A stretch of 64,000 nt of DNA from Bradyrhizobium sp. AZCC 2262 (GTDB lineage: Bacteria > Pseudomonadota > Alphaproteobacteria > Rhizobiales > Xanthobacteraceae), in NCBI RefSeq assembly GCF_036924535.1, contig NZ_JAZHRT010000001.1, positions 7,626,001-7,690,000 of the forward strand, read 5' to 3'. Position 1 is the stretch's first letter. Every line of letters begins with the position of its first letter. The position numbers and the translations under genes were made by a program. The notes beneath the pieces are model-generated. The model was not told the origin of the DNA. It saw only the letters and a program-made list of their open reading frames with translations, and did not search any database. Shown piece by piece: positions 30,807 through 55,636 of the stretch.

Positions 30807-30893
30807 TCCACCCTCCTGTCCCATACGATCAGGCGGGTAACTCGGGACCGCCTTGGGAGAGGCCGGCAGTATCGCGTCGGAATTGGGTGCCCA

Positions 30894-32465
30894 TTGACAA
30901 GGCAAATTAAACGCTTCGGAAAAAGCTCAAATCGAGCAGATGGGCCTTCCCTAGCCGCCGCCTATGTTCGAATGTCGACAGACCTCCAGAAATACTCAAC
31001 CGAAAATCAACTCCACACGATCCGCCGCTATGCTGAACAACGCGGCTACACGATCACGCGTGTTTTTGAAGATTCCGGCCGTAGCGGTCTGAGAATGGAC
31101 GGTCGTGACGGATTGCAATCGCTGATGATGGAAGTGGAATCCGGGACGGCGGGGTTTCAAGCAATTCTGGTCTACGACGTCAGCCGTTGGGGACGATTCC
31201 AGGATGCCGATGAAGGTGCTTACCATGAGCACGTTTGCTCTCGGGCAGGCATACGGGTTCACTATTGTGGCGAACAATTTGACAATGACGGCAGCATCGG
31301 TTCGATCCTGCTCAAAAACGTCAAACGCGTCATGGCTGGCGAATACAGTCGTGAACTATCCGTCAAAGTATTCGCCGGGCAATGCCGCCTCATAGAACAC
31401 GGCTTTCGCCAAGGCGGTCTTGCCGGATTTGGTCTGCGGCGCCTACTAATCGATGAGGCTCGGAACCCGAAAGGCGAACTGGGACGTGGCGACCGAAAAA
31501 ATCTGCAGACCGACCGTGTCGTCCTAACCCCTGGTCCGCTCGAGGAGGTCGAACATGTTCACAAGATCTATTCGATGTTCGTTGAGGACGGTAAGTCGGA
31601 GCGTGAAATTGCACTGGTGCTGAATCAACGAGGAATACTAAGTGATCTCGGCCGTCCCTGGACGCGCGCCTCAATACACCAGATTCTGACCAACGAAAAA
31701 TATATCGGCAACAACATTTTTAATCGCGTTTCTTACAAGCTGAAGCAGCGCCGCGTAGTCAATCAGCGAGACACCTGGGTTCGAGCGGATGGTGTTTTCC
31801 CTTCAATTGTAGATCGCGCTCTTTTCGAGCGTGCAAGAACGATCATTGATCAACGCTGCAATCACTATTCCGATGAAGAATTGCTCTCCCTACTTCAGGT
31901 CGTCCTTGACGAAGAGGGATCGTTGTCGGGTCTCATCATCGATGAGCGCGACGGCATGCCTTCGTCAAGTATATACCGATATCGATTCGGCAGTCTCTTG
32001 AGAGCTTACAGCCTAATCGGCTACGCGCCCGACCGTGATTATCGCTATATTGAAATCAACCGGCACATACGCGAGTCCTTCCCCCGACAATTGGCCGAAA
32101 TTGTCACGGGCCTCGAAAGCGCGGGCGGAACCGTCGTCTGTGACCCCATAAGCCAACTGCTCCTGATCAACCAGGAATTTACCGCATCGATCGTGCTCGC
32201 ACGGTCCTTTGAGACCCGGGCTGGTGCGCTTCGATGGCAAATCCGGTTTGACACGGGCCTTGCGCCGGACGTGACGGTTGCCGTCCGCCTGGATCGCTCG
32301 AACGAACGCCCTCTCGATTACTACATTCTTCCAGGCATCGACATGAATACCGGCCGGATCCGGATGGCGGAAGACAACGCACTTTCGCTGGATGCCTACC
32401 GATTCGAATCGCTCGAGTTTCTCTATTCGATGGCGGCCCAAACATCATTTCGGGAGGCAGCATGA
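30894..32465 (+). CDS. Large serine recombinase (resolvase-type N-terminus)
   Basis: 523 residues if started at the TTG at 30894, which lies just before the conserved AAYVRMSTD; the start is uncertain and the frame stays open to 30708. The catalytic Ser is in VRMST near residue 29, and the catalytic-domain Arg cluster in YDVSRWGR follows near 95. A recombinase domain (about 190-300, GLAGFGLRR and TNEKYIGNNIFNR) comes next. The C-terminal ~200 residues are not recognised. Such enzymes insert or excise mobile elements. The stop overlaps the next gene by 4 bases (ATGA), forming a three-gene operon with two ParB-like genes. Confidence 0.85.
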   Translation: MTRQIKRFGKSSNRADGPSLAAAYVRMSTDLQKYSTENQLHTIRRYAEQRGYTITRVFEDSGRSGLRMDGRDGLQSLMMEVESGTAGFQAILVYDVSRWGRFQDADEGAYHEHVCSRAGIRVHYCGEQFDNDGSIGSILLKNVKRVMAGEYSRELSVKVFAGQCRLIEHGFRQGGLAGFGLRRLLIDEARNPKGELGRGDRKNLQTDRVVLTPGPLEEVEHVHKIYSMFVEDGKSEREIALVLNQRGILSDLGRPWTRASIHQILTNEKYIGNNIFNRVSYKLKQRRVVNQRDTWVRADGVFPSIVDRALFERARTIIDQRCNHYSDEELLSLLQVVLDEEGSLSGLIIDERDGMPSSSIYRYRFGSLLRAYSLIGYAPDRDYRYIEINRHIRESFPRQLAEIVTGLESAGGTVVCDPISQLLLINQEFTASIVLARSFETRAGALRWQIRFDTGLAPDVTVAVRLDRSNERPLDYYILPGIDMNTGRIRMAEDNALSLDAYRFESLEFLYSMAAQTSFREAA

Positions 32466-33373
32466 GTAAATCTAAAGCCAAGGCTTCGAAGCGCGTAAAG
32501 ACCATTCCGATTGACCAGATTCGCTTTCTGAATCCACGAGTTCGCAATCGTCGCAACTTTCAGGAAATTGTGCAGAGCATCGCTAATGTCGGGCTCAAGC
32601 GCCCGATTACGGTGAGCCCACGAAGGAGCGAGGCAGACTCAGCAAGCTACGATCTAGTTTGTGGCCAGGGTCGAATCGAAGCCTTCATCCAGCTCGGTCA
32701 GACGGAGATCCCGGCCATTGTAATTGAGGCCGAGGAAAGTGACTGCCTGGTCATGAGCCTCGTTGAAAACTGCGCAAGGCGCCAACATCGAGCGATCGAC
32801 CTATTGCAGGACATCAGCACCCTACGCAGTCGCGGATACAGCGATCGCGAAATTGCGCCAAAGATTGGCGTCAGCGTCGAATACATTCATATGATCGGAA
32901 CTCTATTAGAAAAGGGTGAGGAGCGGCTAGTTACCGCGGTTGAAGCAGGCATCCTTCCGCTAAATATGGCTATCGAGATTGCAAAATCGAGCGACGAGGA
33001 TGTTCAGCACGCTTTGACCCAAGCTTATACCGAAAAGAAATTACGCGGAAAGAAGCTGGTCGCCGTTCGGCGAATTATCGAGCAACGGCGGCGCCGAGGC
33101 AAGCATATGCACGACAGCCGGTTTGGTCGTCGCGATGGTGCCAAGCGTCCCCTCACAAGTGAATCAATCATCCGTGTCTATCGTCAAGAAGCCGATCGGC
33201 AAAAGCTGCTCGTCAAAAAGGCGGAGGTTACTCAAAGCCGCCTACTCTTCATCGTCGAAGCGATACGTGAGCTGCGCGATGATGAGAATTTTGCAAACTT
33301 GCTAAAGGCGGAAAGTCTCGACTCAATGCCAGCATTTCTGGAGCAGAGGATAGCTGACGGAATGGTGCTATGA
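32462..33373 (+). CDS. ParB/Noc-like protein 1
   Basis: 303 residues. The N-terminal ParB CTPase domain shows VCGQGRIEAFIQLG (GxxRxEA box, about 66-79) and LVENCARRQH (the ENxxRR nucleotide motif, about 100-109). A helix-turn-helix follows (YSDREIAPKIGVSVEYIHM, about 126-145). No ParA is encoded nearby. It overlaps both neighbours by 4 bases. With the recombinase and the second ParB it forms a cassette seen in rhizobial accessory DNA; a role in DNA choice or element maintenance is inferred. Confidence 0.85.
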   Translation: MSKSKAKASKRVKTIPIDQIRFLNPRVRNRRNFQEIVQSIANVGLKRPITVSPRRSEADSASYDLVCGQGRIEAFIQLGQTEIPAIVIEAEESDCLVMSLVENCARRQHRAIDLLQDISTLRSRGYSDREIAPKIGVSVEYIHMIGTLLEKGEERLVTAVEAGILPLNMAIEIAKSSDEDVQHALTQAYTEKKLRGKKLVAVRRIIEQRRRRGKHMHDSRFGRRDGAKRPLTSESIIRVYRQEADRQKLLVKKAEVTQSRLLFIVEAIRELRDDENFANLLKAESLDSMPAFLEQRIADGMVL

Positions 33374-34290
33374 GTAAACCGATTGAACCTCAGATTTTGG
33401 ATACGGTCGCACAGGCCTTCAGTTCCGACTTTGTAGTCGTTCCCATTGCATCCATTCTGCCGGTGAAAGCGATAGAAACGACCGCCAAATCCAGCCACAA
33501 ATACCGTCAGATCGCAGCATCTATTCGAGAGATTGGGTTGGTCGAGCCGCCAGCGGTGATCCAAGACAGCCGCGACCCCAATTCATACCTTTTGCTTGAC
33601 GGTCATCTGCGGATCGAAGTGCTCCGAGACCTCGGCCGGACGGAGGTGGAATGCCTGGTCTCTACCGATGATGAAGCCTTTACTTACAATAAGCGCATCA
33701 GTCGACTGTCTCCCGTCCAGGAGCAGCGAATGATCGCCAAAGCGATCGAACGGAACGTTCCGAAGGAAAAAATCGCAAGAGCACTAGATATCAACGTTCG
33801 AAGCTTGTCGCGCAAGGTTCAATTGCTGGACGGCATCTGCGGAGAAGCAGTTGGCCTGCTGAAGGATAAGATGTGTCCCATGGCGGTATTTGACGTTCTT
33901 CGAAAGATGAACCCGCTTCGCCAGATCGAGGCGGCCGAGCTTCTGATCAATGCCAACAACTTCTCGGTCAGTTATGCTTCGGCTATCCTGGCCGGAACGC
34001 CGCAGGCGCAGTTGGTCACGCCACAGACGCCCAAACGGCTTAAAGGAATGACTGCGGAAGCTATTGCGCGCATGGAGCGCGAACTTTCCCGGCTGCAGGA
34101 AGCCATATCTTCGATCCAGGATTCGTACGGCCAGGATCACCTGCACCTTACCGTCGTAAAGGGATATCTCCAGAAGCTGATCAGCAACGACCGCGTGGCG
34201 CGATACCTCGAGCAGTATCAACCCGATCTGTTTATCGAGTTTCAGAAGATCGCCGAAATGACATCGACGCTTCCGAGCGAGGCGGCCTAA
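33370..34290 (+). CDS. ParB/RepB-like protein 2
   Basis: 306 residues. The N-terminal ParB domain has LLDGHLRIEVLRDLG (about 75-90), the DGHxR variant of the box found in RepB-like partition proteins, then a helix-turn-helix (VPKEKIARALDINVRSLSRKV, about 130-150) and a RepB-type C-terminal region ending with a helical, Ser-rich tail. It differs clearly from the upstream ParB-like protein, so the two are not a recent duplication. It starts inside the stop of that gene. Confidence 0.83.
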   Translation: MSKPIEPQILDTVAQAFSSDFVVVPIASILPVKAIETTAKSSHKYRQIAASIREIGLVEPPAVIQDSRDPNSYLLLDGHLRIEVLRDLGRTEVECLVSTDDEAFTYNKRISRLSPVQEQRMIAKAIERNVPKEKIARALDINVRSLSRKVQLLDGICGEAVGLLKDKMCPMAVFDVLRKMNPLRQIEAAELLINANNFSVSYASAILAGTPQAQLVTPQTPKRLKGMTAEAIARMERELSRLQEAISSIQDSYGQDHLHLTVVKGYLQKLISNDRVARYLEQYQPDLFIEFQKIAEMTSTLPSEAA

Positions 34291-35122: not shown

Positions 35123-36358
35123 TTAGCTCGCGCGTTCATTTTGGTCCGCAATCACGTCACGAATCCTGGGACGAAGGACGTTGACGAAAGCATTGACGCG
35201 CTCCGCTAACCAATCAAAGGCTTGCTTTCGAATGGCTGCCTCCCCCAAATTTCCCACTGTCTTAGAATCGATGATGCGTTTGCGGCCGTATCTGTCGTCT
35301 GTGAGATGCGCCGTGCCGTTCAAAGCACCCTTTACCTCATCCCAGTTACCGATAATTTCATTCATAGCCGCCTCGCCAGGACTGTTTTGACTTGCTGAGA
35401 GGAACACCCCCACCTCTCCTTTTTGCAAATCCCGGTAGACGGTGAGCCAACTGCTGCCCTGAGGTGCTGGTAGCATGAAAGCGAGATAGCCCTGACGGGC
35501 CGGTTTGGGAACGCTTTGGCTACGGTCGTCCAATCGTAGGTGAGAATCTAGAAATTCCTTCCAGAAGGCCTGTTGTGTGGCGGCTAAAGCGGCGCGATCT
35601 GGATCCGCCCCAACGTCCTCTTCAGCAGCGGCTTCGTCTAGATCCTGCACAACAAAACCTTCTGGCGCCGCCACGACATTCCGTAGCACTGACGTTGTCC
35701 GAGCGACAACGCGGGGAGCCACCAAACGCTCTCCGTTAGGTAGGCGATAGACCGGAAACTCCACCAGGCCGAAAGTGAAGTGCAATCCAGCATGAACCTG
35801 GAGATAGCTTGCGATGACCTCCACATCCTCGCGCACTCCATCGCCGAGAATCAGGAGCAAGAACCGACCCCGGCGCAAATTGGCCGTTACAGCATCTGTA
35901 AATTGTATCTCATCAACAGTTGGCGAAACGGTCCGTACGAGTTTCAAAAGCGCATCCGGCCCCATACCCGTGCGGTTCGCCACCTCACGCTGAAGATCAG
36001 AAAACGACCATCGGCTGAGCACCTTGGCATAATCTAGAATCTGACCGATCACCTCGCGCCGCGCTTCTGGGTTACGCCAGAGTTTGCATTCCACTAGCAC
36101 CGGCAAGCCCGAAGGAGTGATTAGAAAATTGTCAACCCGACCTGCCCTGCCAAGCTGCATCTCGCGACAAACACTAATTGCTCCGACGAACATCGGGTCG
36201 ATTTCTGCGATTGGCAGCGCTGCAGGGTGAGCATGAACCAACTCCTGTATCTCTGCCTCGAGCATGATGGCCCCCCGGCCCTGCTGCGGCGCTGGTTCAA
36301 GCGCGACGGAGCGCCCGTCCGCAGTGAGAAGAACGGGTGAACAATGTTGTCTATTCAA
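35123..36358 (-). CDS. PD-(D/E)XK nuclease-like protein
   Basis: 411 residues from a TTG at 36358, which has AGGAG six bases ahead; an ATG at 36265 is the alternative. The nuclease core is visible at about 70-115: GRVDNFLITPSGLPVLVECK supplies the Asp and the ExK, and NPEARREVIGQILDYAKVL is the following helix, a pattern shared with DUF91/NucS-like and related nucleases. The C-terminal half is unassigned. It is the last gene of a five-gene minus-strand cluster, 84 bases after the SNF2 helicase. It probably cuts DNA as part of the system. Confidence 0.75.
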   Translation of the reverse strand: MNRQHCSPVLLTADGRSVALEPAPQQGRGAIMLEAEIQELVHAHPAALPIAEIDPMFVGAISVCREMQLGRAGRVDNFLITPSGLPVLVECKLWRNPEARREVIGQILDYAKVLSRWSFSDLQREVANRTGMGPDALLKLVRTVSPTVDEIQFTDAVTANLRRGRFLLLILGDGVREDVEVIASYLQVHAGLHFTFGLVEFPVYRLPNGERLVAPRVVARTTSVLRNVVAAPEGFVVQDLDEAAAEEDVGADPDRAALAATQQAFWKEFLDSHLRLDDRSQSVPKPARQGYLAFMLPAPQGSSWLTVYRDLQKGEVGVFLSASQNSPGEAAMNEIIGNWDEVKGALNGTAHLTDDRYGRKRIIDSKTVGNLGEAAIRKQAFDWLAERVNAFVNVLRPRIRDVIADQNERAS

Positions 36359-36442
36359 AGGGTTCTCCTACGCACAAACAGGCTGCTCAGGTACGCAAAT
36401 GGCGATCAATTGCCAGCCAATGTCCGCCCACCTTACAGTGCT

Positions 36443-39400
36443 TTACTGCGCAGACTTCCATACATGCAGCTTGGCACGAAGATCGTTTAACATTTCAGGC
36501 GGGAGAGCTTTGAGACGTAGCCCTTGCTCGCGGCCCTCAGCGCCCTGCCCGTCGTCGGTCCCTGACGCATCGTCCAGTCGTACACGATCATCATCGCTGG
36601 TGACATCACCCCCCGTTAGCACCTCAAAGGTTTGGGCGCGCATTCTAAGCTCTTCGAACATGCGCTCATCATATGTACCGGCAAGGAATGGGACGCCAAC
36701 TTCCAGCAATGGACCCTCGCCTACTTTCGCCGCCTCCCTCTCACGAAATGTCTTACTTCCAATTCTATCGATGCGACCAGTCCTTTGCTCGAGCACTGCC
36801 GGATTCCAAGCAAGGTCATAATGCACAACCCGTCCACAATGCCGATGAAGATCTATGCCCTCAGCGCCGACGGACGTGCAGATCAAAATCTCTGGAAGTA
36901 GAGGGGTATTGAATCCTGCAAAAATTCGCTCGCGCGCTTGCTGATCACCGCCGCCCAAGACAAGCGCAACAAAATTCTGATCACGCAGACGCGTGGCATC
37001 AATAAGGTTGTACCGAGCGCTAAGGCGATTATCGGCAGACCCGCTAGCGCTTAGGACGTCCTCTGCAAAAATGGCCATACGGTCGGCCATGCTTTCATGC
37101 TGTCCCGGAAGAGGCTCCAGAAACCTCTCGGCGAGGAGTTCACCCCAGCCGCGCTCGTCGCGGTCCGATTTCTCCGGCAGTAGCCGCAATAGCATGCTCT
37201 CACGCAAGAGCGCTCGACGGAGCGCCTGCAATACCAACAAACGCGTCTTCCAATCTGGCGGCCCGTGGCCGAAGGTCAAATGAAACAGATGTTCATGAAG
37301 AGAGGCCAACGCGGCAGGAACCTGGTCTGCAATTGACGGCGCCGGTCCGAGCCAGAGGCTCGGGGCTTCAAAGTAACTATCCAAGATTGGAACACTACCT
37401 GAGCGACGCGCCCGTTCGCGGCGCTCTAGCAGCGCGCGCGTAAGCTCCTCGATGTCACGATCCGCGGGTTTTTCAGTTACCGGCTTATAGTAGGCGTGAA
37501 CCCCTCGCTCATCTACGTGAGCCACGTCTTCGGTTTCTGAATCGCTTGGTTCAGATGAAAATGCCGAGCCATAGGGGTGCTCAATCCAGTCCACCACGGA
37601 CATGTCGCGAAGAATCAAACGCAACTCGCTCGTTGCATTTCCAAACAGCCGATGAGCCACCGCAAATTCAACAGCTCGGTGGACGAAAACACGATCAACT
37701 CGCTCCCCGAGCAAATCTTGCTTGTATCGAAGGGCCTGTTGCGCGATTTCGCGGACGTCCTCGGTCTGGAGTGCCAAGTCCCTTCGCGGTACCGAGGCTA
37801 GCTCAGTCCGAGATAGCGATAACAGCACGCGGTCCAAACCCAACACAACGAGGTCGCCCTCGCGTCGGGTCATCCGTCCACGAAGTGTACGCAACGCCGT
37901 TTCACCGCCTAGACACTTTCTACGGCGCTGCTTCAGTTCGACACGGATTCGATCAGCAATGATATCTCGTAGGCGTTGTGCGGTGTTAACCCGAAAGCAG
38001 AAAATAAGGGTCTTCTCGCCATCCCTCCAAGATTTGGTGGCGGCTTCGACAACCTCGCTTAGCTTTGGGTGCTTTGGGTCATCTTTGCCACGGACCATAC
38101 TAAAGAGCGTCTCAAAGTATGGCTTGGCCGCGGGCAATTCGCCAAAGGCCCGACCCAACCGGCGACCCTCTGCTGACTCGAGCAATGTCGAATAGCATCC
38201 CGTTAGCGCACTCCCCAGGGACGAACGGCCTTTGCCTTGTTTGAGCGCTGTCACGCAACGCATGAGAAGGTAATGGGGCAGCTCTCCGTCACCATGAACA
38301 TCGAGACCCGGCGCCGCATGCAGTAGGTGTCGATCCTGTCGAGCCCTTGCTGTGTCAGGTAGCGCATATTCTTGCCCAACAAGGGTCAGGCGATGCTCCG
38401 TATGTCTACGGTGCCGGATGACCAATTTGCCGAGCACCCGCGACAGCCGTTCATTGAATGCAAAAAGCAGGAGAGCTTGGTAAAAGAAAGGTCTCAATTC
38501 TGGATCGAGAGACGCCACTGCATCGCGCGCAATGCTCTGTAGTTCAAGATGACCCTTTTCTGCCAAAATATTAGGTTCGCAGAGCTGACCCCTTACCGTT
38601 TTCAGAGCGGGGGAATTCCAGACCTCGGCGATGGCACCAGCAGACAACGGTACGCGTGACCAATTCTTCGAAAATCGTCGGCCGGCTTGTTCCGCACCAT
38701 GCAATGCCGTTTTTACGTCCACCTGACAGTGCTCGACCAATCGCGCCCTGCGACGCTGGCGCATTTCCACATCCGCGGAGCACTCCAGGCGGGCCGACAC
38801 ATGGAGAATTTCGAGCATTTCAGCTGACCGCAATTGGAACGGTGTCGCGGTCAAAAGGAGCAATCGACGCGTTCGTTCTGCAATCAGTTCAGCAAAATTG
38901 GCATAGCCATTGGCTCCCTTGCTTGGTCCATTCTTCCAATTATGAGCCTCATCGACAATCACCAATGGAAATGAACGATTGAGCATCTCCTCATTCAGCG
39001 CACGGTAAACCTTGGTCAGATAGGTTTCAATTTTCTTGAAGCCATCTTGCCTGTCACGACGAAACGGCTCGCTGAGCTCGCGAGACGCTAGCAGGAATTG
39101 CTCCAGGAGTGCTTGATACCGGCTCGGCCTGTCTAGCCGTTCTAACGCTATAATCGCCTCATTCTCGCTAAAGGGCAGCTGAGAGGCCTCCCATTCCGTT
39201 AGGTCGGTTAGGTGATAGGCTGTCGTTGGCCAGTGATCAGGCGCGCCTTTAAGCAGCCGCTCGCGCGAATCGATGTTGAATCTCGCACCCCAGTAACGAA
39301 AAATAACGCCAAGCAAAAAGCGTCGCTTTAGGTCGTAGTTCCTTAGTTTGCGATCGCCAAACACATTCATTGTTGTGACAACCACTCGGCCACCGCGTCC

Positions 39401-39841
39401 ACCTCGCCGGCGGACAGCAGCAACCAGTTCATCTAGACGATCGGCGGGAACCGGTCGAAAGCGCTCGCGTGCTTCTGGCGAAACACCGCGTGATACACAA
39501 CGCCGAACAAACTCGCTGACCTCTCGGTTCCATTTGTTGAATAGTGCCCCATTGGGCGGTGTAACGATCAAAATCTTCTGATAGCAACCGTCTAGTCCGG
39601 TACTCTGCTCACTGGCGTCCATGCTCTCTAGTACGGAAAAGGCAACGGCCAGTGCCACGAACGTCTTTCCCATACCCACTTCGTCAGCCAAGAGCTGCAG
39701 CTCCCAGCGCCTCGCGTCCCTAGTGTTGAACAGCCTCGCTAAGAGCTCGCGCGCGGTCGCAGTCTGACGTTCTGCGTCGCGTGGATCTTTCATACGCCTC
39801 TTGTCGTGCCCAAGATCTATGTGCTGGCTAAGGGCAATCAC
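36443..39841 (-). CDS. SNF2/superfamily 2 helicase-like ATPase
   Basis: 1132 residues from a GTG that overlaps the upstream PLD gene stop (GTGA). Walker A is DEVGMGKT (53-60), Walker B VIVDEAHNWKN (about 292), motif III LLLTATPFQL (about 330), and the C-terminal motifs ICTSVGAEGIDLH and QRTGRIDRIGSK (about 985-1025) are intact. A long insert between the RecA halves (about 350-800) is typical of DrmD-like/RapA-like SNF2 proteins. It should translocate on double-stranded DNA. In DISARM an SNF2 protein works beside a PLD protein; here the rest of DISARM is missing. Confidence 0.87.
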   Translation of the reverse strand: MIALSQHIDLGHDKRRMKDPRDAERQTATARELLARLFNTRDARRWELQLLADEVGMGKTFVALAVAFSVLESMDASEQSTGLDGCYQKILIVTPPNGALFNKWNREVSEFVRRCVSRGVSPEARERFRPVPADRLDELVAAVRRRGGRGGRVVVTTMNVFGDRKLRNYDLKRRFLLGVIFRYWGARFNIDSRERLLKGAPDHWPTTAYHLTDLTEWEASQLPFSENEAIIALERLDRPSRYQALLEQFLLASRELSEPFRRDRQDGFKKIETYLTKVYRALNEEMLNRSFPLVIVDEAHNWKNGPSKGANGYANFAELIAERTRRLLLLTATPFQLRSAEMLEILHVSARLECSADVEMRQRRRARLVEHCQVDVKTALHGAEQAGRRFSKNWSRVPLSAGAIAEVWNSPALKTVRGQLCEPNILAEKGHLELQSIARDAVASLDPELRPFFYQALLLFAFNERLSRVLGKLVIRHRRHTEHRLTLVGQEYALPDTARARQDRHLLHAAPGLDVHGDGELPHYLLMRCVTALKQGKGRSSLGSALTGCYSTLLESAEGRRLGRAFGELPAAKPYFETLFSMVRGKDDPKHPKLSEVVEAATKSWRDGEKTLIFCFRVNTAQRLRDIIADRIRVELKQRRRKCLGGETALRTLRGRMTRREGDLVVLGLDRVLLSLSRTELASVPRRDLALQTEDVREIAQQALRYKQDLLGERVDRVFVHRAVEFAVAHRLFGNATSELRLILRDMSVVDWIEHPYGSAFSSEPSDSETEDVAHVDERGVHAYYKPVTEKPADRDIEELTRALLERRERARRSGSVPILDSYFEAPSLWLGPAPSIADQVPAALASLHEHLFHLTFGHGPPDWKTRLLVLQALRRALLRESMLLRLLPEKSDRDERGWGELLAERFLEPLPGQHESMADRMAIFAEDVLSASGSADNRLSARYNLIDATRLRDQNFVALVLGGGDQQARERIFAGFNTPLLPEILICTSVGAEGIDLHRHCGRVVHYDLAWNPAVLEQRTGRIDRIGSKTFREREAAKVGEGPLLEVGVPFLAGTYDERMFEELRMRAQTFEVLTGGDVTSDDDRVRLDDASGTDDGQGAEGREQGLRLKALPPEMLNDLRAKLHVWKSAQ

Positions 39842-41907
39842 GCGTGAGCCCCGGACTTCAGGATGGCGCTACGGTAGCGATGAAACGCGCGCTGCGATTT
39901 TAATTCGCCACCGTTCCACTCGATGAGATTCGAAAGCAGTTCTTCTACATCCTTGCGAGCACGAGCTAGGCACTCGCGCCACGTGCCAACGCGCGAAGTT
40001 GGCACGTCAAAGCTATCGGCCTGCGCAAAGCAGGCCAAGATTTCAACCAATTGAAATCCAGCCGCCGTGGGCGAGCGGCGACGCTCGTGCACTGCCCGTA
40101 TTACCTCTCGAGCAAGCGTGAGAGGACTGACTTCGCCCAACAAAGCATGCTTCATCCCAGTTTCGGTCGACCTTGCAGCGGCCCTAAGGTCGTCATGAAT
40201 GCCCTGCAGAGCTTCTACGAATTCGCGAACCTGATAAGATTGAATTCTTGTCGTATCGACCGCAGACTCGTCCTTGCTGCTGACCTTGGCGGCATAGGAA
40301 TCGTCTCCGGGTTCGTCTGGCGGTCGAGGATAGATGTCCTCGATCGATATTTTACCTTGGTAATAGGCAAGTAGCACACTCTCGCCTGGCGGCTTAGCTC
40401 CGGGACTAATTGGTAATAGAAGCCGAGCCTCAAGATCTACGTTGACAGGAAACTCGACAGAATATGAACTCCACAACACACTTACACGCTGATCGCGCAG
40501 TAACTGTTCCAAGACATTGGGTTCTAGTGCCCCGCTCTTAGGCTTGCGGCCGTTGAGTAACGGCAGATCCACGGCCCCCAGCAGTGAAACAGAGAAAGAA
40601 TGGGTCTGCTTGGGGTCCACAAGCGTGAGCTCTAGCTGCAACTGCTTCTTTTCGTTGCCAACCGGCACCAGACGAATGTCGTGAATGAAAGTCGGCCAGA
40701 TAAGATCGTCGTTACTCTTTTCTGGCGGCGTCACGGCACTCCGGCCGTTACCATCTAATGGAATGGGTTGGCCAGTTGCCTTAGGGATCAAGTATGTCAA
40801 ATGCTGGCGTTCGCGACCCCGTCGAAGCATAACGACACCGGCCTCAATATTCGATCGGGCACCAGCAAAGCCCCATCCATGCTCGGTAAAATTTGCCGAT
40901 CCAACATAGGCCATCGTTGTGCTCGGCCCTTCGACCACAACCACTTTTGCGTGGAGAGCTCGTACTGACTGGAAATCCGTGCGTCCTCCGACTTCGGCGG
41001 GCATAACAAAAGGATCTACAGCTTGGATTTCACCGGTCATACCAAGCCGGCGGACGTCCCAAGCAGCAAGTTCTGCAGGGAGCTTTGGACGAAACGACGA
41101 TTGCGATTCTGGCGAAGCCTCGGTGAGTAAGCGGATTTTTGCTCCAGCCAGTTTATTGTCGCCAAATTGGGTTAACAGTTGAGCAATCGGGCCCTGATCA
41201 CCCTTGTCCGACCAAAAGGGCGAAACGATCGTGACTGCGACAATCTTCTCCTCGGGCCATAAGCGAACAAATTCCGTTGCAAGCGACTTTTCGCCCCAGC
41301 TCCACACAAAATGGTCGTCATCAAGAGGTTGCTTACGCCAATCACTCATTACGTCGAGCGCTCGGTTCCGCACTTGCTCAGCAGCTAACGTCCACCAAGA
41401 CCGAAGCGGCTGCTCCATCGTGGTCAGCGCCTGCTGTACAAGCGCCGAAACGCACGGCGTCTGCGCTGTAGCCAAAATAGGCAGGGTAACCTCGCGATTG
41501 TGACGATAACCCGCTTCAGTTAGATTCGCACTGCCGATCAAGAGTCTGACGGCGCGCTCTTGCACCACCAATAGCACCTTCGCATGCAACTTCCTCCCGC
41601 CAGGACCAACCAACGGCATATGTTCAATATGAAGAGAGCGTGGACGGCCACGAAATCGGCGCGCATCCATCATCACAACCGTCGACTCGGTTTGAGCAAG
41701 CGCGCGCTGCATTGCTACACGATTGGACCACGACGTATCTTCCCATGCTCCAAGCCCAAGGAAGGTTGGCAGGTAATCAGAATCAAAAAACGTTGGGTCA
41801 AACTCGAAAGTCGTTGCGAGCATTCCGACAACAATGCCATGCGCGGCAATATCCGGACGGACCCAATCCATCATCTTGCGTCTATCCAGGTCGTCGTCGT
41901 GGCTCAT
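39838..41907 (-). CDS. Phospholipase D-superfamily nuclease-like protein
   Basis: 689 residues. Two PLD half-motifs are seen: HAKVLLVVQERAVRLLIGSANLTE (about 108-131) and HAKVVVVEGPSTTMAYVGSANFTE (about 320-343), each with HxK and the later GSxN. The pair would form one active site for phosphodiester cleavage. The remaining C-terminal 330 residues are unassigned. It overlaps both the upstream unknown gene and the downstream helicase by 4 bases, so the three are translated as a unit and probably form a complex. Confidence 0.85.
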   Translation of the reverse strand: MSHDDDLDRRKMMDWVRPDIAAHGIVVGMLATTFEFDPTFFDSDYLPTFLGLGAWEDTSWSNRVAMQRALAQTESTVVMMDARRFRGRPRSLHIEHMPLVGPGGRKLHAKVLLVVQERAVRLLIGSANLTEAGYRHNREVTLPILATAQTPCVSALVQQALTTMEQPLRSWWTLAAEQVRNRALDVMSDWRKQPLDDDHFVWSWGEKSLATEFVRLWPEEKIVAVTIVSPFWSDKGDQGPIAQLLTQFGDNKLAGAKIRLLTEASPESQSSFRPKLPAELAAWDVRRLGMTGEIQAVDPFVMPAEVGGRTDFQSVRALHAKVVVVEGPSTTMAYVGSANFTEHGWGFAGARSNIEAGVVMLRRGRERQHLTYLIPKATGQPIPLDGNGRSAVTPPEKSNDDLIWPTFIHDIRLVPVGNEKKQLQLELTLVDPKQTHSFSVSLLGAVDLPLLNGRKPKSGALEPNVLEQLLRDQRVSVLWSSYSVEFPVNVDLEARLLLPISPGAKPPGESVLLAYYQGKISIEDIYPRPPDEPGDDSYAAKVSSKDESAVDTTRIQSYQVREFVEALQGIHDDLRAAARSTETGMKHALLGEVSPLTLAREVIRAVHERRRSPTAAGFQLVEILACFAQADSFDVPTSRVGTWRECLARARKDVEELLSNLIEWNGGELKSQRAFHRYRSAILKSGAHA

Positions 41908-43238
41908 GACGCCTGACCCAGGCTCGCCGCAATGAAGCGATCAGCAACTGTCAGCCTATACTCGTGCGGGTGAACGTCATCTATCGATCTTGGTTCGCCG
42001 CTCACTTCTCCGATCTGCGACAGCGTCAGCTCATAGCTGCCGGACTTGCGTTCGATCCATGGAAGCTTGCGGCGACCGCGATCGAATTTGCCGCGCTGAA
42101 CGTCGGCATGGCGGTCCAGCAGCGCTTCAACAAACAGGGATGTTCGGTCCGCCGCTGCCGCGGTATTCACGAAGACCTTAGTATCATTCAGCCGATCTAT
42201 ATCGCGCCGAAACTCCTCGGTCATTCCCGAAGAGAGCGCATTCTGGAGTTCTCTGGCCGCGTCTGAAATCTCGTCCGAGCACCGAACAACTATTGGGTCT
42301 CGCGCGGCGCTCGCCGCCCTTATGACACCCTCGGCTTTGCACAGCCACAAGACCCGTTCAAATCCAAGCAAGACAAGTCGGTAGCATCGTTCAAAGGCGA
42401 GAATAGCGCCGATAGCCTCCTTCAAGTCCAAATAATCTACCCGCCGCGAGGCAGCTCTCTGCATTCTCGCCAAGCGGGACAGTTCGTGCTCACCTTTTTT
42501 CGGTGGTACTTGCTTGAGGAGGTCAACTATGCGCAACCGGATAGGATCTCGAACCAAGGCCTCCTCAAGGCAATCCCCTTCGCCACGACCAACCGGTGCT
42601 GCTACATGGGCACGGCGGCCCCATTCACGTAGACTGCCGACGCTTATAGCGCCCTCTCCGTCACGGATAATGCTGCGCAACTTGGGCGGAGCATCGGTCT
42701 CGTTCAGAAATGCATTTCCTAGCCGTTCGCCCGAATCTTGAGTCGGCAACATGGCCGAACGATTAAGAAGTCGAAGATAACCAGCAACGTTAGCGTAAAT
42801 GCCAATTGCACCGTAACGCGCCTGCACTGCCAACATTTTGAAATTGGCATCAGTGAGGCGGCCGTCGGTTTCCTTAAGTCTTGCGACGTGCGCTTGCGCA
42901 TAGGTCACCCCACGGATGCCAGATGCGGACAGTTCCTCATCTTGTTCAGACGCAAGCACATTCGCGGCCGCCCAGAATCGTTCAAATAGCAACACGCGCT
43001 CTGTCCTCATGCGAGCATCGCTCCGTTCGTTCTCCGCCCCGGCCGGAGCAAGCAAACTGCCAGCACAGATAGCTGAGAAATAACGCGGCCGGCCGGCAGC
43101 ATTGGTCAAGCCGGGCAGTATCTTGTCAGCCAAAAATAGGTAGCCGCGCTCGAAACCAAGCGGATCGATGCTGCTACCTGGCAGATCTGAAGGATCATAG
43201 GCTGTAAGAAACGGCCTTGGAAAGCGATTGAAATTCAA
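41904..43238 (-). CDS. Unknown protein of a PLD/SNF2 defence-type cluster (DUF6361-like?)
   Basis: 444 residues from a TTG at 43238. The N-terminus (LGFERGYLFLADKILPGLTNAAGRPRYF in two runs, about 27-55) resembles the opening of DUF6361-type proteins, which place a LFPG..T.......RYF pattern there, but I cannot confirm the family. The rest is helical with no visible catalytic motif. Its tight overlap with the PLD gene suggests an accessory or specificity subunit. Confidence 0.65.
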   Translation of the reverse strand: MNFNRFPRPFLTAYDPSDLPGSSIDPLGFERGYLFLADKILPGLTNAAGRPRYFSAICAGSLLAPAGAENERSDARMRTERVLLFERFWAAANVLASEQDEELSASGIRGVTYAQAHVARLKETDGRLTDANFKMLAVQARYGAIGIYANVAGYLRLLNRSAMLPTQDSGERLGNAFLNETDAPPKLRSIIRDGEGAISVGSLREWGRRAHVAAPVGRGEGDCLEEALVRDPIRLRIVDLLKQVPPKKGEHELSRLARMQRAASRRVDYLDLKEAIGAILAFERCYRLVLLGFERVLWLCKAEGVIRAASAARDPIVVRCSDEISDAARELQNALSSGMTEEFRRDIDRLNDTKVFVNTAAAADRTSLFVEALLDRHADVQRGKFDRGRRKLPWIERKSGSYELTLSQIGEVSGEPRSIDDVHPHEYRLTVADRFIAASLGQAS

Positions 43239-43323
43239 CGTGGCCCCACGGCGTTGCTAAAGACACACTGACTCGCTGATAACACAGGCTATCCCCGAAC
43301 GGCACGGTCTACGTCCGCAAAGA

Positions 43324-46300
43324 TCAAGGCATTCCGGGCCCGCCTCTTTGGAGAGAGACCGTGCAGGCCAACTCCAAATATCTGCAAAAGGCGTTTACCA
43401 GCTGCATCTGCCGCGGCGTCCGGCACTCGGCCTGAAACACGCGCGGAGATGCCACGAGAATGCAAAGGCACTTTGCCCGCGACGTCGCCACGTTGAGCCT
43501 GTTGAGGCTGTAGAGAAACTCCATCCCTCGTGGAGCGTCGGCATGACTCGATGTTGTCATTGAATATATGGCGATTGGCGCCTCTTGTCCTTGAAACTTG
43601 TCGACAGTGCCAATACGTGCGCCAGGCAATCGCTCCTGCAGTTCGAAGACCTGCGCGTTGTAAGGAGCGATTATCAAGATATCCTCCAACCTGATGGGGG
43701 CTTCCTTCCCTGTGCTGTCGACCCAGCTTGCCTTGCTGCTGAGGATTTCGTCGACGAGCCCTTTGATTTCGTCTGCCTCTTCGGGACAGGAGTTCTGGTT
43801 ACCCTCGTGATGCACGGCAAGATAACGAAGTCCGGATCCGCGGACGCGGCTCAATGACCTGATCTCCTGCCGCTCTAATCCCGCGCGCGATCGAAGTCGG
43901 CCCTCATAGAACAGTTCGGACGTGAAGGTGCAGATATCCGGATGAAGGCGCCAGGTTTCCTCAAGGAAAAGTCCACGACCGCCCTCGATCGTTGCGTGTT
44001 CGCCCAAGACGTGATCAAGCGCAGATGTCGCAACGCCGTCTGGATGACTTCCTTGTATCGGTTGCTCAAGCTGCCTTGGGTCGCCCAGAAGGACAATACT
44101 TTCGGCCGCCTGAGAGACGGCTAATACATTTGCTAGTGACATCTGCGCGGCCTCGTCAACGAACAGAACATCCACAATGCCCGCCGCGTCCGGGCGGGCC
44201 CAAAACCAGCCGGTGGCACCACCAACTTGACAACCATTGCCGAGCCCCTCGATAAAATCTGGGTTCTTGGTCGTCAGCTGAAGGCCCGGAAGAGAGGCTG
44301 CCTTCTCTCTGACCTTTTGAATGCATTGCATTCCAAGTTGTTGCTCGGCAGCTGCCTCCCGCGATTTGTCAAGCAAGTGACGAATGACCTTATGGCTGTT
44401 CGCCGTGACGCCAACTGTGCGCTTGTCGCGCACCAGTGCGCAGATCATGTGCGCACCGGCATGGGTCTTGCCGGCCCCCGGCGGCCCCTGCACCGGGAGC
44501 AGGCTTTGATCCAGCGAGTGCGCCGCTCGCATCGCTCGCGCTAACAACGGCTCGCCAGCTTGCTCTAACGGCCGCCCGCGAAGGCGTGGAGCGACCTTGA
44601 GCAGCAAATCGCGAGCGGCGCGATAGGGTCCGGCCCCGATGATCCCGTGATCTGCAACGTGCTCGCCAATTCGGTAGATCGATTCTGCAAGAACCTGATT
44701 GTCGATGAATTTGTGCGCAAACACGGCTTCGGGATGCAGGCCTGCCGTGTCCTGACGTTTCTTAATGTCGACTGTCCTGTCATCATTGGAAATTGCGACG
44801 ACGCTGCCAAGCTTTTCGCCTCCAACCCGCTTCAAATCGTCATCGGCGCGAACATCCGTTTCCTGAACCGTGAACTCGTAGCGATGAATCGGCGTTTTCA
44901 CCGTTCCCCCAACAGTGCCGAGAAAGGTCAACCCGGCTAGCCCGGCACGCTCATGCAGGAGATCTTCTGCTGACAAGTCACTCAGCCGAAAATACTCCCA
45001 CCAGACCGCTTTATTCTCGCGTCCGAAAAAATCGATCAAATGGGCCAGTAACCAGTGCGCCTGCTGTTCCAGGCTGCGTTCGGCCACATCGTCCGGGACG
45101 CCAGTGATCAATCGAGCCACAAGTCCGGCGACCCGGCGCTTCCAGACACTGAGGTCCTCGCTAATTTCGGCCGCCTTTAAGTGCGGGCGATCGATTGCCT
45201 TCCCTTGCGAGATCAGACCTCGCCGCACTCCCTCAAGCCAGTCCCGCAAAGCGCGCGTCGACGCGCAGTCATCTCGGTTGTAACCGATGATGGCGGCCTG
45301 ATCGCTTGGGTCAATTCCATCAGTATCGGCCAATTCGAGGCAGGCCTGCACCCGAGCCATCGCGCCGCCAACGTCGATCAGTGGGATTGTTCGGTCAAAC
45401 CGGTAGAGCGGCTCCAGCTTCTTGATCGAGTAACTTTCGACGCTGGCGCGGATGCTCTGCCGAACGACGGCGTACAAATCCACGAACACACCCGCGCGAA
45501 GCAGATTGTCGACCTCGTCCTCTCGGGTAGCGTATCGTCCCATTAGCCGCTTCAGCGCAGCCGGCTCGTAGGGCGCAAAGTGGTAGATGTGCAAGCTGGG
45601 GTGCTTTGTCAGCCGCTCTTTGACAAAGTCGATGAAGCGTTCGAACGCTACCCGCTCGTGCTGCCGTGTCGTCGCCCAGTCGCCGACATAGGCGTCCGTG
45701 CCGTCGTCGTTGGCATAAACGTAGCCAAACAGGAACTCGAGCCCGCCGCCGTCCACGAACGGATCGCCCTCGAAATCGAAGAAGATGTCGCCGGCCGAAG
45801 GCTCGGGCAGCCGGAACAAGCCAAATTCCGCCACCAGTGGCAGCACCTCGTGAAGTAGCCGCCCCGCTCCGCGACCATCAACCTGAAGTCGCGCCTGCTC
45901 GCGCACCTTCTCATAGCTTGGCGCAGTGCCCCGATCAGGCCGCCATTGCAGCGGGATGGGCAGTTTGGCGAGGGCGGCCATGGTGCCCACGCCTCGCCGG
46001 AGCAGCTCGTCAATCTGTGTCTTGGCTATCCCTGCGACAAGCGACAGGTGATCGTCGGCGCGCCGCCTCGAAGCACAGGGCTCGCGCCATCGGCAGACCT
46101 CGCAGTGCTCAATCGGGCCGGGATAGAGGCCATCACGTGGAGGCGTAGCCGCAAAGGTCTCCAGACTTCGCTTGATGCGTCGGTAGAACGCCGCAAAATC
46201 GGCCACACGGTAGGCCTCCGGCAGGTACTCCGTCCCGGGTGTCACGACATGGGCCGTCTCCGGGACCTTCTGCTGAACGGTCGCCAATAGGTCCGAGTAG

Positions 46301-46752
46301 AGGCTGAGCTGCAGGACCGTGTTGCCTTTGGTCTCGCGGGCCAACTTGGTGTCGGTGACCTCATATGACCAGGCGCCCAAACCGCTGGGAGTCTCAACCC
46401 GCCGGAGCACGTCAGCGCGGCCGCTCCAATACCCATCCCGTAACGCCGCCTGAACGATAACCGCGTCGCCGCGCGTCATCGCCTGCCGCGTTTGGATAAT
46501 CGAGGCCTGGTCGATGCCAACGCCGGCAATGACGGTGGCGCTCCTGTCCTGCTTGGCGAGATGATCGACAAAGCCCTGCTCATGGATCCTGCCGCGCTCA
46601 ACCAGGGCATCGAGGGCCGGATCGTCGCGGACCTTCGGTTTAGCGAGCTCGCCTTGGGCGACCTTGAGATCGAGGAATGTCAGGTAACGACAATTCAAGT
46701 GCCCAACCAAGTCGCCAGCGCTGAAGACGATCGCCGCACCGTCCTTTTGCAT
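43324..46752 (-). CDS. TM0106-like RecB nuclease / RNase H-like / SF1 helicase fusion
   Basis: 1142 residues. An N-terminal RecB/Cas4-like nuclease (YEVTDTKLA near 130, with the cysteine cluster CEVCRWREPC near 220) is followed by a predicted RNase H-like exonuclease domain (DIFFDFEGDPFVDGG near 320) and a C-terminal superfamily 1 helicase: Walker A GPPGAGKT (about 757), DEAAQ box (about 865), VDKFQGQE (about 1080) and LNVATSRAK. This order matches the TM0106 family. It lies 86 bases upstream of the unknown/PLD/SNF2 genes in the same direction and is probably the first gene of their operon. Confidence 0.87.
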   Translation of the reverse strand: MQKDGAAIVFSAGDLVGHLNCRYLTFLDLKVAQGELAKPKVRDDPALDALVERGRIHEQGFVDHLAKQDRSATVIAGVGIDQASIIQTRQAMTRGDAVIVQAALRDGYWSGRADVLRRVETPSGLGAWSYEVTDTKLARETKGNTVLQLSLYSDLLATVQQKVPETAHVVTPGTEYLPEAYRVADFAAFYRRIKRSLETFAATPPRDGLYPGPIEHCEVCRWREPCASRRRADDHLSLVAGIAKTQIDELLRRGVGTMAALAKLPIPLQWRPDRGTAPSYEKVREQARLQVDGRGAGRLLHEVLPLVAEFGLFRLPEPSAGDIFFDFEGDPFVDGGGLEFLFGYVYANDDGTDAYVGDWATTRQHERVAFERFIDFVKERLTKHPSLHIYHFAPYEPAALKRLMGRYATREDEVDNLLRAGVFVDLYAVVRQSIRASVESYSIKKLEPLYRFDRTIPLIDVGGAMARVQACLELADTDGIDPSDQAAIIGYNRDDCASTRALRDWLEGVRRGLISQGKAIDRPHLKAAEISEDLSVWKRRVAGLVARLITGVPDDVAERSLEQQAHWLLAHLIDFFGRENKAVWWEYFRLSDLSAEDLLHERAGLAGLTFLGTVGGTVKTPIHRYEFTVQETDVRADDDLKRVGGEKLGSVVAISNDDRTVDIKKRQDTAGLHPEAVFAHKFIDNQVLAESIYRIGEHVADHGIIGAGPYRAARDLLLKVAPRLRGRPLEQAGEPLLARAMRAAHSLDQSLLPVQGPPGAGKTHAGAHMICALVRDKRTVGVTANSHKVIRHLLDKSREAAAEQQLGMQCIQKVREKAASLPGLQLTTKNPDFIEGLGNGCQVGGATGWFWARPDAAGIVDVLFVDEAAQMSLANVLAVSQAAESIVLLGDPRQLEQPIQGSHPDGVATSALDHVLGEHATIEGGRGLFLEETWRLHPDICTFTSELFYEGRLRSRAGLERQEIRSLSRVRGSGLRYLAVHHEGNQNSCPEEADEIKGLVDEILSSKASWVDSTGKEAPIRLEDILIIAPYNAQVFELQERLPGARIGTVDKFQGQEAPIAIYSMTTSSHADAPRGMEFLYSLNRLNVATSRAKCLCILVASPRVFQAECRTPRQMQLVNAFCRYLELACTVSLQRGGPGMP

Positions 46753-47094
46753 CCATCCCCCGAAACTGCTGCCGGGACCCTCGGGACACGGCTTTGGCTA
46801 TAACAATACCGGTCTTCAGATGAACGCGATAGGGTGGAACGAGACACTCAAAGCGAGAATCATCCCCCCTGCCTCTGCAGCAGCGGCGTGCCGGCTGGGA
46901 TAGCCGTGCGTTCGCCGATCCATCGTTATGGAACGCTGACTTCCGCTTCTCGCTGGAATCAGGCAATTGTGGAATGTAGGCTTTTGACCCGAGAAACTAC
47001 GCGGGTATGGGCGCGCTCTGCGGTCACGAGCAGTCTAGGGCGCGTCAATATTGAGTGCCGTCCAGCGCTTTCATGTAACCCAGGAACAAAGGTG
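46753..47094. other. 342-base gap
   Basis: Lies upstream of the TM0106-like gene on its promoter side. No convincing gene. A promoter for the five-gene cluster should be here, but no box stands out by eye. Confidence 0.4.
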
Positions 47095-48618: not shown

Positions 48619-48814
48619 CTGCCTAGGTTCAGGCGACGAAGCTGACACCAATGATCCGACGAATGTCCGCCTCCCTTCAACAGCAGACATTCGCAAATCA
48701 GTTGTTATGGAAAAAAGTGACTCAATGGCCGAGATGGACCGTCAACCAACGATAATTTTGTCGCGTTCAAGACCACACATGCCATGATAGCATACCGCTG
48801 GGTAGGGGAACGGC

Positions 48815-49942: not shown

Positions 49943-49971
49943 GAGCTTACACATCCAGCAATTTGATTATT

Positions 49972-55499: not shown

Positions 55500-55636
55500 G
55501 TTGGAATAGCTAGGCGTAAGAACGCCGGTGGATTCGGAAAATAGATGTTATGGAAGAAGCAGGCCAAAGGCCGACTCGGTGCTGCGATAGACGCTGATGC
55601 AAATCGACGGACATCACGCCGAACAACTTGCCATAC

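What the first reader, a model, noticed from the sequence alone, without database searches (positions are those of the whole stretch)
35123..46752. Five-gene nuclease/helicase cluster not matching a defence system I know
On one strand, with two 4-base overlaps and gaps under 90 bases, lie a TM0106-like RecB/RNase H/SF1 fusion, an unknown protein, a PLD nuclease, an SNF2 helicase and a PD-(D/E)XK nuclease. Three nuclease folds and two helicases in one apparent operon, inside a defence island, suggest a multi-subunit anti-phage machine. PLD plus SNF2 recall DISARM, but its DUF1998 helicase, DrmB and methylase are absent. No methylase is present, so self/non-self discrimination must work another way.
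Basis: partly seen in the sequence, partly recalled or inferred. Interest (0 to 1): 0.85.

Follow-up and report, generated by a model that had tools for sequence, protein, structure and literature searches.

The report
Modular nuclease-helicase phage-defence gene cluster
Five neighbouring genes in a Bradyrhizobium-like genome look like one anti-phage machine, but comparison shows a conserved three-gene core joined to two separately travelling nuclease genes, inside an island of defence genes divided by a repeated short DNA site.

Summary
The middle three (A, unknown; B, two-motif PLD nuclease; C, SNF2 ATPase) form a tight unit: of 20 loci found in other lineages, 16 keep A then B, and 12 of 12 that can be read further keep C. 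A, B and C diverge in step (r 0.94-0.98). They are a divergent branch beside PADLOC's Zac and PDC-M27. The upstream TM0106-RNaseH-SF1 gene occurs in 66 of 265 genus genomes, usually without the trio. Yet in 9 of 37 loci read it lies directly upstream of PLD modules of several kinds (this trio, a true ZacABC, a third trio, pairs, a lone PLD). AddAB-like or Hhe-like genes hold that place in other ABC loci. So a helicase-nuclease 'engine' is a recurrent, swappable partner. The fifth gene is an independent cassette, alone between two repeats in one relative. Following this up revealed same-orientation 38-bp dif-like repeats that divide such islands, this window's included, into cassettes, in several beside serine recombinase and ParB genes. 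That array is the most novel part. Antiphage function is inferred, not shown.

The parts
43324..46752 (-). 'T': TM0106-type RecB-like nuclease (four Cys, probably Fe-S) + RNase H-fold exonuclease + UPF1-like SF1 helicase fusion (1142 aa)
   Evidence: TIGR03491 238 bits, RNase_H_2, AAA_11/12. C21/C217/C220/C226, D114, D134, K136, D326, E328, D495, K762/T763 and D866/E867 are identical in 46 of 46 distinct genus homologues; E131 in 40 of 46. PDB matches SMUBP-2/UPF1. Found in 66 of 265 genus genomes.
41904..43238 (-). 'A': unknown mostly helical protein (444 aa), first gene of the conserved trio
   Evidence: No Pfam, PADLOC or NCBIfam hit. 433 homologues among the candidates scored. 9 of 35 family members weakly hit PDC-M27A. 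AlphaFold2 pLDDT 88, no Foldseek PDB match below E 0.2.
39838..41907 (-). 'B': PLD-superfamily nuclease with two HxK...GSxN motifs (689 aa)
   Evidence: PLDc_2. H108/K110/S126/N128 and H319/K321/S337/N339 identical in 18 of 18 distinct homologues. Model pLDDT 87; best PDB match Tdp1 E 5e-9 (TM 0.32 by query), also SauUSI 1.2e-4. ZacB 2e-22.
36443..39841 (-). 'C': SNF2/RapA-type SF2 ATPase (1132 aa)
   Evidence: Helicase_C, SNF2. PDC-M27C 1e-42, ZacC 9e-32, DrmD 3e-25. RapA in PDB. G58/K59/T60 and D297/E298 identical in 16 of 16 distinct homologues.
35123..36358 (-). Probable PD-(D/E)XK nuclease, PDC-S11-like (411 aa); independent cassette
   Evidence: Weak PDC-S11; D75/E90/K92 motif by eye. 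81-87% identical copies in four genus genomes without a C match. Sole gene between two repeats in G499.
55538..55575 (-). Cassette-boundary repeat (dif-like site), strong
   Evidence: Matrix score 49; no hit of 6 or more in 8 shuffles. The matrix includes this site.
52957..52994 (-). Cassette-boundary repeat, strong
   Evidence: Matrix score 46. The matrix includes this site.
48695..48732 (-). Cassette-boundary repeat, degenerate
   Evidence: Matrix score 17. The matrix includes this site.
46910..46933 (-). Right half of a boundary repeat, about 160 nt upstream of the TM0106 gene
   Evidence: The only match in the whole genome to one variant of the repeat's core, up to 2 mismatches; below the matrix threshold
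30708..34290 (+). Large serine recombinase followed by two ParB/RepB-like genes; island end module
   Evidence: Resolvase + Recombinase, RepB PF07506 twice. Homologues of the same three genes lie at the end of the arrays of G511, G058, G005 and G554.
62000..63394 (+). Second serine recombinase, at the other end of the island
   Evidence: Homologue near the opposite end of the arrays in G511, G058, G428, G005, G519 and G554.

Best explanation
The cluster is a composite of three modules in a defence-cassette island. (1) Core: A-B-C, a three-gene ATP-dependent DNA-targeting system, a divergent branch of the Zac/PDC-M27 group. Proposed working: the SNF2-type ATPase C translocates on or remodels foreign duplex DNA, B (Tdp1-like PLD fold with two HxK motifs) cleaves it, and helical A is the adaptor or sensor that joins them. 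No methylase is needed if recognition resembles Type IV restriction (modified or structurally abnormal phage DNA), as in the PLD-plus-helicase enzyme SauUSI (function recalled). (2) T, the RecB-like nuclease/RNase H-fold exonuclease/SF1 helicase fusion, is a recurrent but optional partner that would process the ends B makes; AddAB-like pairs or Hhe-like proteins hold the same upstream place in other loci. (3) The 411-aa PD-(D/E)XK gene is an independent cassette. Shown: gene order, conservation, modularity, intact catalytic motifs. Inferred: antiphage function, physical complex, substrate, division of labour.
For: A followed by B in 16 of 20 loci from other lineages and by C in 12 of 12 that extend far enough; no T or 411-aa gene in the sequence held. 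4-nt overlaps at both junctions in the five loci measured. A/B/C identity matrices correlate at 0.94-0.98 over 14 loci. Bona fide PDC-M27 locus with the same order. Bona fide ZacABC directly downstream of an 87%-identical T in G667. T upstream of a third trio in four genomes. T directly upstream of a PLD module in 9 of 37 T loci examined; the tree needs 6 changes of that label, at least 3 by supported branches. AddAB-like or Hhe-like genes upstream of other ABC loci. Solitary repeat-bounded 411-aa gene. Catalytic residues conserved. PLD fold matches Tdp1 and SauUSI.
Against: No functional data. Window A has no PADLOC hit, and its profile link to ZacA is a 39-column motif at 24.5% probability; the one ZacA hit among 35 A relatives (E 0.0094) is no better than chance-looking single hits to Cas10, Cas11e and ZorA. 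In 28 of 37 T loci no PLD module was found directly downstream, and 11 of 17 complete ABC loci in the genus lack T upstream, so co-operation of T with ABC may be mere island clustering; the PLD-module label is also somewhat clustered on the T tree (15 of 500 shuffles as low). Third-codon GC of T (0.685) differs from A, B, C and the 411-aa gene (0.55-0.56), which points to separate arrival. Top-120 T homologues share no listed contig length with top-120 A homologues, though that test is weak (clusters list one contig; the window's own T is not listed under its own contig). The Type IV idea rests on analogy only.
Confidence: 0.6

Rival explanations
1. A true five-gene multi-subunit anti-phage machine: all five act together and loss of one abolishes defence.
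For: Same strand, two overlaps, gaps of 84-85 nt; no cassette-boundary repeat found between any of the five at matrix score 6 or more; the 411-aa gene has the same third-codon GC as the trio.
Against: No other locus with all five was found in what I read. T and the 411-aa gene were not found in the sequence held for 20 ABC-type loci of other lineages. The 411-aa gene occurs without a C match in G499, G519, G511 and G533 and as a sole cassette in G499. T has no PLD module directly downstream in 28 of 37 loci.
Confidence: 0.08
2. Pure neighbourhood: three independent defence systems (T alone; ABC; the 411-aa nuclease) that sit side by side only because islands collect defence genes; no cooperation between T and ABC.
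For: T is mostly without ABC; different third-codon GC; T's DNA is conserved in relatives only from about 100-160 nt upstream to at most about 80-100 nt downstream, apart from three loci that share more than 1 kb upstream.
Against: T lies directly upstream, on the same strand, of four different PLD modules within one clade of 11 closely related T genes, and of other PLD modules in two divergent clades. Unrelated helicase-nuclease genes hold the same upstream place in other ABC loci. Chance island adjacency should not favour one order and strand, but I had no island-matched control.
Confidence: 0.27
3. The trio (or all five) is a DNA-repair or plasmid/chromosome maintenance module, not phage defence.
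For: The PLD fold is closest to Tdp1 and the SNF2 protein to RapA/Rad54-type proteins; two ParB/RepB genes and recombinases lie next to it.
Against: Rare and patchy: A in 2 of 100 relatives and 1 of 398 phylum genomes, the window's own included, unlike repair genes. Located among known defence-type genes. Nearest profiles are defence candidates.
Confidence: 0.05

Closest known systems
Zac (PADLOC-DB ZacA/ZacB/ZacC; a true ZacA also hits Pfam DUF6361)
   Same: Same three roles and order (A, PLD, SNF2), same strand, often overlapping; window B and C hit ZacB (2e-22) and ZacC (9e-32); in G667 a true ZacABC sits downstream of an 87%-identical T gene.
   Different: Window A has no DUF6361 or ZacA hit and only a 39-column motif match. 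B and C match in separate stretches, far below a true member.
PDC-M27 (PADLOC phage-defence candidate, M27A/B/C)
   Same: Same order; window C's best profile is PDC-M27C (1e-42); an A-family profile reaches the A gene of a bona fide PDC-M27 locus at 29 bits; 9 of 35 A relatives weakly hit PDC-M27A.
   Different: Window A itself does not hit PDC-M27A; B hits PDC-M27B only at 2e-9; no T upstream in the one PDC-M27 locus read.
DISARM
   Same: A PLD protein (DrmC-like) and an SNF2 helicase (DrmD-like).
   Different: No DrmA/DrmB/DUF1998 helicase and no methylase among the five; DrmD 107.9 bits against a cut-off of 610, DrmC 51 against 133.
ARMADA / BRIGADE / TALON (PMC12458937)
   Same: Large helicase-nuclease defence operons.
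   Different: All are defined by a YprA-family helicase (abstract and 12 of 59 passages seen); none was found among the five genes.
Mokosh
   Same: SF1 helicase similarity of T to MkoA/MkoC.
   Different: Best-scoring stretch is the helicase part only; T's nuclease domains and the SNF2 partner are not Mokosh features (Mokosh composition recalled).
Acinetobacter dif (pdif) modules
   Same: Gene modules bounded by short dif-like recombination sites (recalled; only the listing and abstract openings seen); comparable to the repeat-bounded cassettes seen here.
   Different: Here all strong sites of an array have one orientation, carry an adjacent palindrome, and the cargo is largely defence-type genes on a chromosome; Xer dependence untested.

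Membership tests
Zac | ZacA (DUF6361) subunit | tested here: not met
   No hit of window A to DUF6361 or ZacA; profile-profile probability 24.5% over 39 columns; 1 of 35 relatives hits ZacA at E 0.0094, a chance-like level.
Zac | ZacB PLD and ZacC SNF2 subunits in order A-B-C | tested here: inconclusive
   Order met; partial profile hits 2e-22 and 9e-32, against 1.5e-98 and 2.5e-202 for a true member.
PDC-M27 | M27A, M27B and M27C profiles in order | tested here: inconclusive
   Order met; C 1e-42, B 2e-9, A no hit; A relatives 9 of 35 weak, best 5.6e-4; an A-family profile hits a true M27A at 29 bits in a search of one 20-kb locus.
DISARM | DrmA/DrmB helicase-DUF1998 pair and methylase | tested here: not met
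   None among the five; only sub-cut-off DrmC/DrmD similarity.
Mokosh | Full-length MkoA or MkoC | tested here: not met
   Best stretch limited to about residues 860-1126 of T, the helicase.
TM0106 RecB-like nuclease (TIGR03491) | Score above curated cut-off; nuclease motif and four Cys | tested here: met
   238.2 bits against 97.45; C21/C217/C220/C226 and D114, D134, K136 in 46 of 46 distinct homologues, E131 in 40 of 46.
PDC-S11 (411-aa gene) | Full-length profile match | tested here: inconclusive
   7.6e-7 over the C-terminal part, 5.8e-5 over the N-terminal part with a different S11 model.
Xer/dif modules (the repeat) | XerC and XerD arms flanking a 6-bp centre | tested here: inconclusive
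   Several sites, read as reverse complement, keep CGCATA-N7-TTATG like E. coli dif (dif recalled); the XerC-like arm varies between sites; the host's own dif was not looked for.
Xer/dif modules (the repeat) | Recombination by XerCD | not testable with these tools
   Needs an experiment.

The most novel reading that the evidence does not exclude
Bradyrhizobium-type chromosomes carry defence-cassette arrays: defence genes and operons, each ending in a same-orientation 38-bp dif-like repeat with a palindrome, in several cases between a serine recombinase and a ParB-ParB-serine-recombinase end module. Site-specific recombination shuffles cassettes, and fusions inside a cassette create composite systems in which a helicase-nuclease 'engine' (T, AddAB-like or Hhe-like) is paired with exchangeable PLD-based A-B-C effectors. 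The window's five genes would be one such composite.
Probability: 0.5. Interest if true: 0.78.

Novelty: new variant of a known kind. Interest (0 to 1): 0.58.

Why it matters
It corrects a plausible five-subunit reading into a testable modular one: a conserved A-B-C core without a methylase, plus interchangeable helicase-nuclease partners. It defines a divergent branch of the little-studied Zac/PDC-M27 group, with a mostly helical A protein that gave no significant Foldseek match in the PDB. If the repeat-bounded array is a real recombination platform, it offers a mechanism for how defence islands are assembled and reshuffled, comparable to integrons or Acinetobacter dif modules but loaded with anti-phage genes.

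Tried and rejected

Rows dropped and limits: one search printed only selected loci. The T comparison used 36 fetched loci, chosen by me, plus the window, of 66 genus genomes with a T match; G522's stretch ends about 400 nt after T, so its downstream side is hardly seen, and in G632 a PLD-motif gene three places downstream was not counted. One search counted 66 T rows that include the same gene fetched twice; one search recounts 46 distinct. The boundary matrix was built on 27 hand-filtered sites, window sites included. In one search only blocks of 600 nt or more were counted, and many share the same T gene, so they are not independent.
Full report
WHAT IS THERE. The window is bases 7,626,001-7,690,000 of a 9.48-Mb single-contig genome; named hits among the closest homologues are Bradyrhizobium. 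The five minus-strand ORFs, two 4-nt overlaps and gaps of 85 and 84 nt are as described. GC is 61-65% up to 30 kb and 52-60% after it. I call the genes T (43324-46752), A (41904-43238), B (39838-41907), C (36443-39841) and X (35123-36358). T is a TM0106-type nuclease (238 bits, cut-off 97), an RNase_H_2 domain and a UPF1-like SF1 helicase. B is a PLD protein with two HxK motifs. C is an SNF2/RapA-type ATPase. A hits nothing in Pfam, PADLOC or NCBIfam at E 0.01. X shows a D...ExK motif and only weak PDC-S11 similarity. Catalytic residues are conserved among distinct homologues other than the window's: T's four Cys, D114, D134, K136, D326, E328, D495, K762/T763 and D866/E867 in 46 of 46 (E131 in 40 of 46); B's two motifs in 18 of 18; C's G58/K59/T60 and D297/E298 in 16 of 16 (an earlier count, held duplicates).

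THE TRIO IS THE UNIT. A scan of named genome contigs with the A-family alignment gave 20 loci from Planctomycetes, Verrucomicrobia, Acidobacteria, Myxococcota and others. In 16 of 20, A is followed directly by B, and in 12 of 12 where the contig continues, by C. Of the other four, one contig ends within A and three hold only A fragments. A and C are each broken into two ORFs in one of the 12, a Polyangiaceae MAG. The overlaps are 4 nt at both junctions in the five loci I measured. Pairwise identities of A, B and C correlate at 0.94-0.98 over 14 loci. T and X were found in none of the 20; of the 16 A-B loci, 15 have at least 1.5 kb upstream of A, and of the 12 A-B-C loci, 10 have at least 1 kb downstream of C. 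A is rare nearby: 2 of 100 relatives and 1 of 398 phylum genomes, the window's own included. A close C occurs only in the window's genome, with six weak matches elsewhere among 265 genus genomes.

WHAT THE TRIO IS RELATED TO. PADLOC's best profiles are PDC-M27C (1e-42) and ZacC (9e-32) for C, and ZacB (2e-22), DrmC (9e-12) and PDC-M27B (2e-9) for B. Of 35 A relatives, 9 weakly hit PDC-M27A (best 5.6e-4). One hits ZacA at 0.0094, no better than single chance-like hits to Cas10, Cas11e and ZorA profiles in the same scan. PDC-M27A itself was found in 1 of 219 phylum genomes. That locus (G163) has the same gene order, and my A-family profile, which includes the third trio's A proteins, reaches its A gene at 29 bits within that locus. 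Profile comparison of A with ten ZacA-type proteins gives only a 39-column motif at 24.5% probability. With the third trio's A protein it gives 98.6% over nearly the full length, from only four near-identical sequences. So the trio is a divergent branch beside Zac and PDC-M27, not a proven member of either. A's model (pLDDT 88) is mostly helical, with no PDB match below E 0.2. B's model (pLDDT 87) matches Tdp1 (5e-9, TM 0.32 by query length), polyphosphate kinase, phospholipase D and, more weakly, SauUSI.

T IS A RECURRENT BUT OPTIONAL PARTNER. T occurs in 66 of 265 genus genomes. I read 36 T loci, chosen by me, plus the window. In 9 of 37, T is directly upstream, on the same strand, of a PLD module: the window's ABC; a third, divergent ABC in G027, G510, G602 and G551 (T 37-38% identical; B is split in two ORFs in G027); a true ZacABC in G667 (ZacA 2e-75, ZacB 1.5e-98, ZacC 2.5e-202); a B-A pair in G654; an A-B-like pair in G665 (behind a 149-aa ORF; its A call is by eye); a lone PLD in G041. 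In the other 28 no such module was found directly downstream; one of them (G522) has only about 400 nt there, and in G632 a PLD-motif gene lies three places downstream and was not counted. On the T tree the label needs 6 changes, at least 3 by supported branches, and is mildly clustered (15 of 500 shuffles as low). Within the 11-member clade of the window's T, four members have four different PLD modules. Conversely, of 17 complete ABC loci in the genus (three recognised only by weak A scores), 6 have T directly upstream and 11 do not. Among those 11, G630 and G057 have a UvrD helicase with a PD-(D/E)XK gene (AddAB-like; Pfam run on G630, 65-67% identity for G057), and G644 has an Hhe/PDC-S37-like SF1 helicase-nuclease with a UvrD gene before it. 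Different helicase-nuclease genes thus hold the same upstream place. Against integral membership: T's third-codon GC (0.685) is near that of T genes elsewhere (0.69-0.73) but not of A, B, C or X (0.55-0.56), and the best 120 T and A homologues share no listed contig length, a weak test because each cluster lists one contig.

X IS INDEPENDENT. X has 81-87% identical copies in G499, G519, G511 and G533, none with a C match. In G499 X alone lies between two repeats.

THE REPEAT AND THE ARRAYS. DNA similarity of the window's T region to ten relatives ends at the same base or its neighbour, 42-43 nt before the window's stop codon, in all ten, close to where the relatives' own genes end. In six, T is followed within 36-64 nt by a shared element; in G041 and G654 that element comes after the extra module. 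The element, about GTCGGCC-nnn-GGCCGACTTCTTCCATAACA..., occurs in runs. In all ten arrays with two or more strong sites every strong site has the same orientation, and in 28 of 32 sites the nearest preceding ORF is on the site's strand. The exact 16-mer core is in 19 of 166 genus genomes, while the reversed control pattern is in 0 of 166; the window's own genome is not among the 19. The window has two strong copies (55538, 52957), a degenerate one (48695) and a half copy (46910-46933); eight shuffles gave none at 6 or more. Homologous blocks shared between arrays end within 100 nt of a site in 40 of 93 cases at the 3' end, against a mean of 3.1 (maximum 9) for random placement; 5' ends do so in 12 of 93. 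Many blocks repeat the same gene, and homology also ends where genes end, so this is supportive, not proof. A serine recombinase with two ParB-like genes closes the arrays of the window, G511, G058, G005 and G554, and a second serine recombinase lies near the other end in the window and six others. G041 shows one ParB-like gene in the part read; G428, G519, G499, G654 and G579 show none of the three. The recombinase at 55% identity or more is in 8 of 19 genomes with the exact core and 2 of 30 others, and in 3 of the 8 not near the repeat. The repeat's core, read on the other strand, resembles a Xer dif site (dif recalled); this is a lead only.

HOW IT MAY WORK. Shown: order, conservation, modularity, intact motifs. 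Inferred: C moves on or remodels DNA, B cuts, A adapts or senses, and T degrades from the ends. Absence of a methylase is explained most simply by Type IV-like recognition of modified or abnormal DNA, by analogy with SauUSI (function recalled; structure match). I put the composite reading at 0.6, pure neighbourhood at 0.27 and a five-part machine at 0.08.

LITERATURE. For PMC12458937 I saw the abstract and 12 of 59 passages; for the dif-module papers only the listing (15 of 33 papers) and abstract openings. Searches for Zac, DUF6361, TM0106 and PDC-M27 found no defence paper on these genes in their listings; PDC-S11 is named in two papers (listing). The library is open-access only, so absence there is weak evidence of novelty.

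Noticed in passing
window 46910-55575 and loci L065, L067-L069, L094-L098, L160-L176: Same-orientation 38-bp dif-like repeats with a palindrome divide defence islands of several genus genomes into cassettes.
   Followed up: partly
window 30708-34290 and 62000-63394: Island ends carry a CcrB-like large serine recombinase with two ParB/RepB-like genes, and a second serine recombinase; the same layout recurs in G511, G058, G005 and G554.
   Followed up: partly
window 49972-52514: PDC-M01AB (Septu-like) complete pair, 9e-240 and 6e-110.
   Followed up: no
window 55637-59283: DEAD helicase + HATPase pair ending 61 nt before a repeat; the same pair is a repeat-bounded cassette beside the T cassette in G428.
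   Followed up: partly
L005 6406-13422: A Wadjet-like JetD gene (with an SMC-like gene before it) overlaps the A gene by 4 nt, so the trio follows a Wadjet-type operon in a Verrucomicrobia MAG.
   Followed up: no
L061-L064, L081-L083, L091: Divergent T genes are preceded by a WYL regulator and, on the other strand, a JAB-ThiF gene; this unit exists with and without the trio (Pfam run on L062 only; the rest by sequence likeness).
   Followed up: no
L069, L079, L095, L097: McrBC-like pairs (AAA gene checked by Pfam in L095 only, McrC by eye) lie directly upstream of T in L069, L095 and L097 and downstream of it in L079.
   Followed up: no
L013 1022-6322: A helicase with an MrfA Zn-binding domain (YprA/MrfA-like) lies three genes upstream of the trio in a Myxococcota MAG, a possible bridge to DISARM-like systems.
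   Followed up: no
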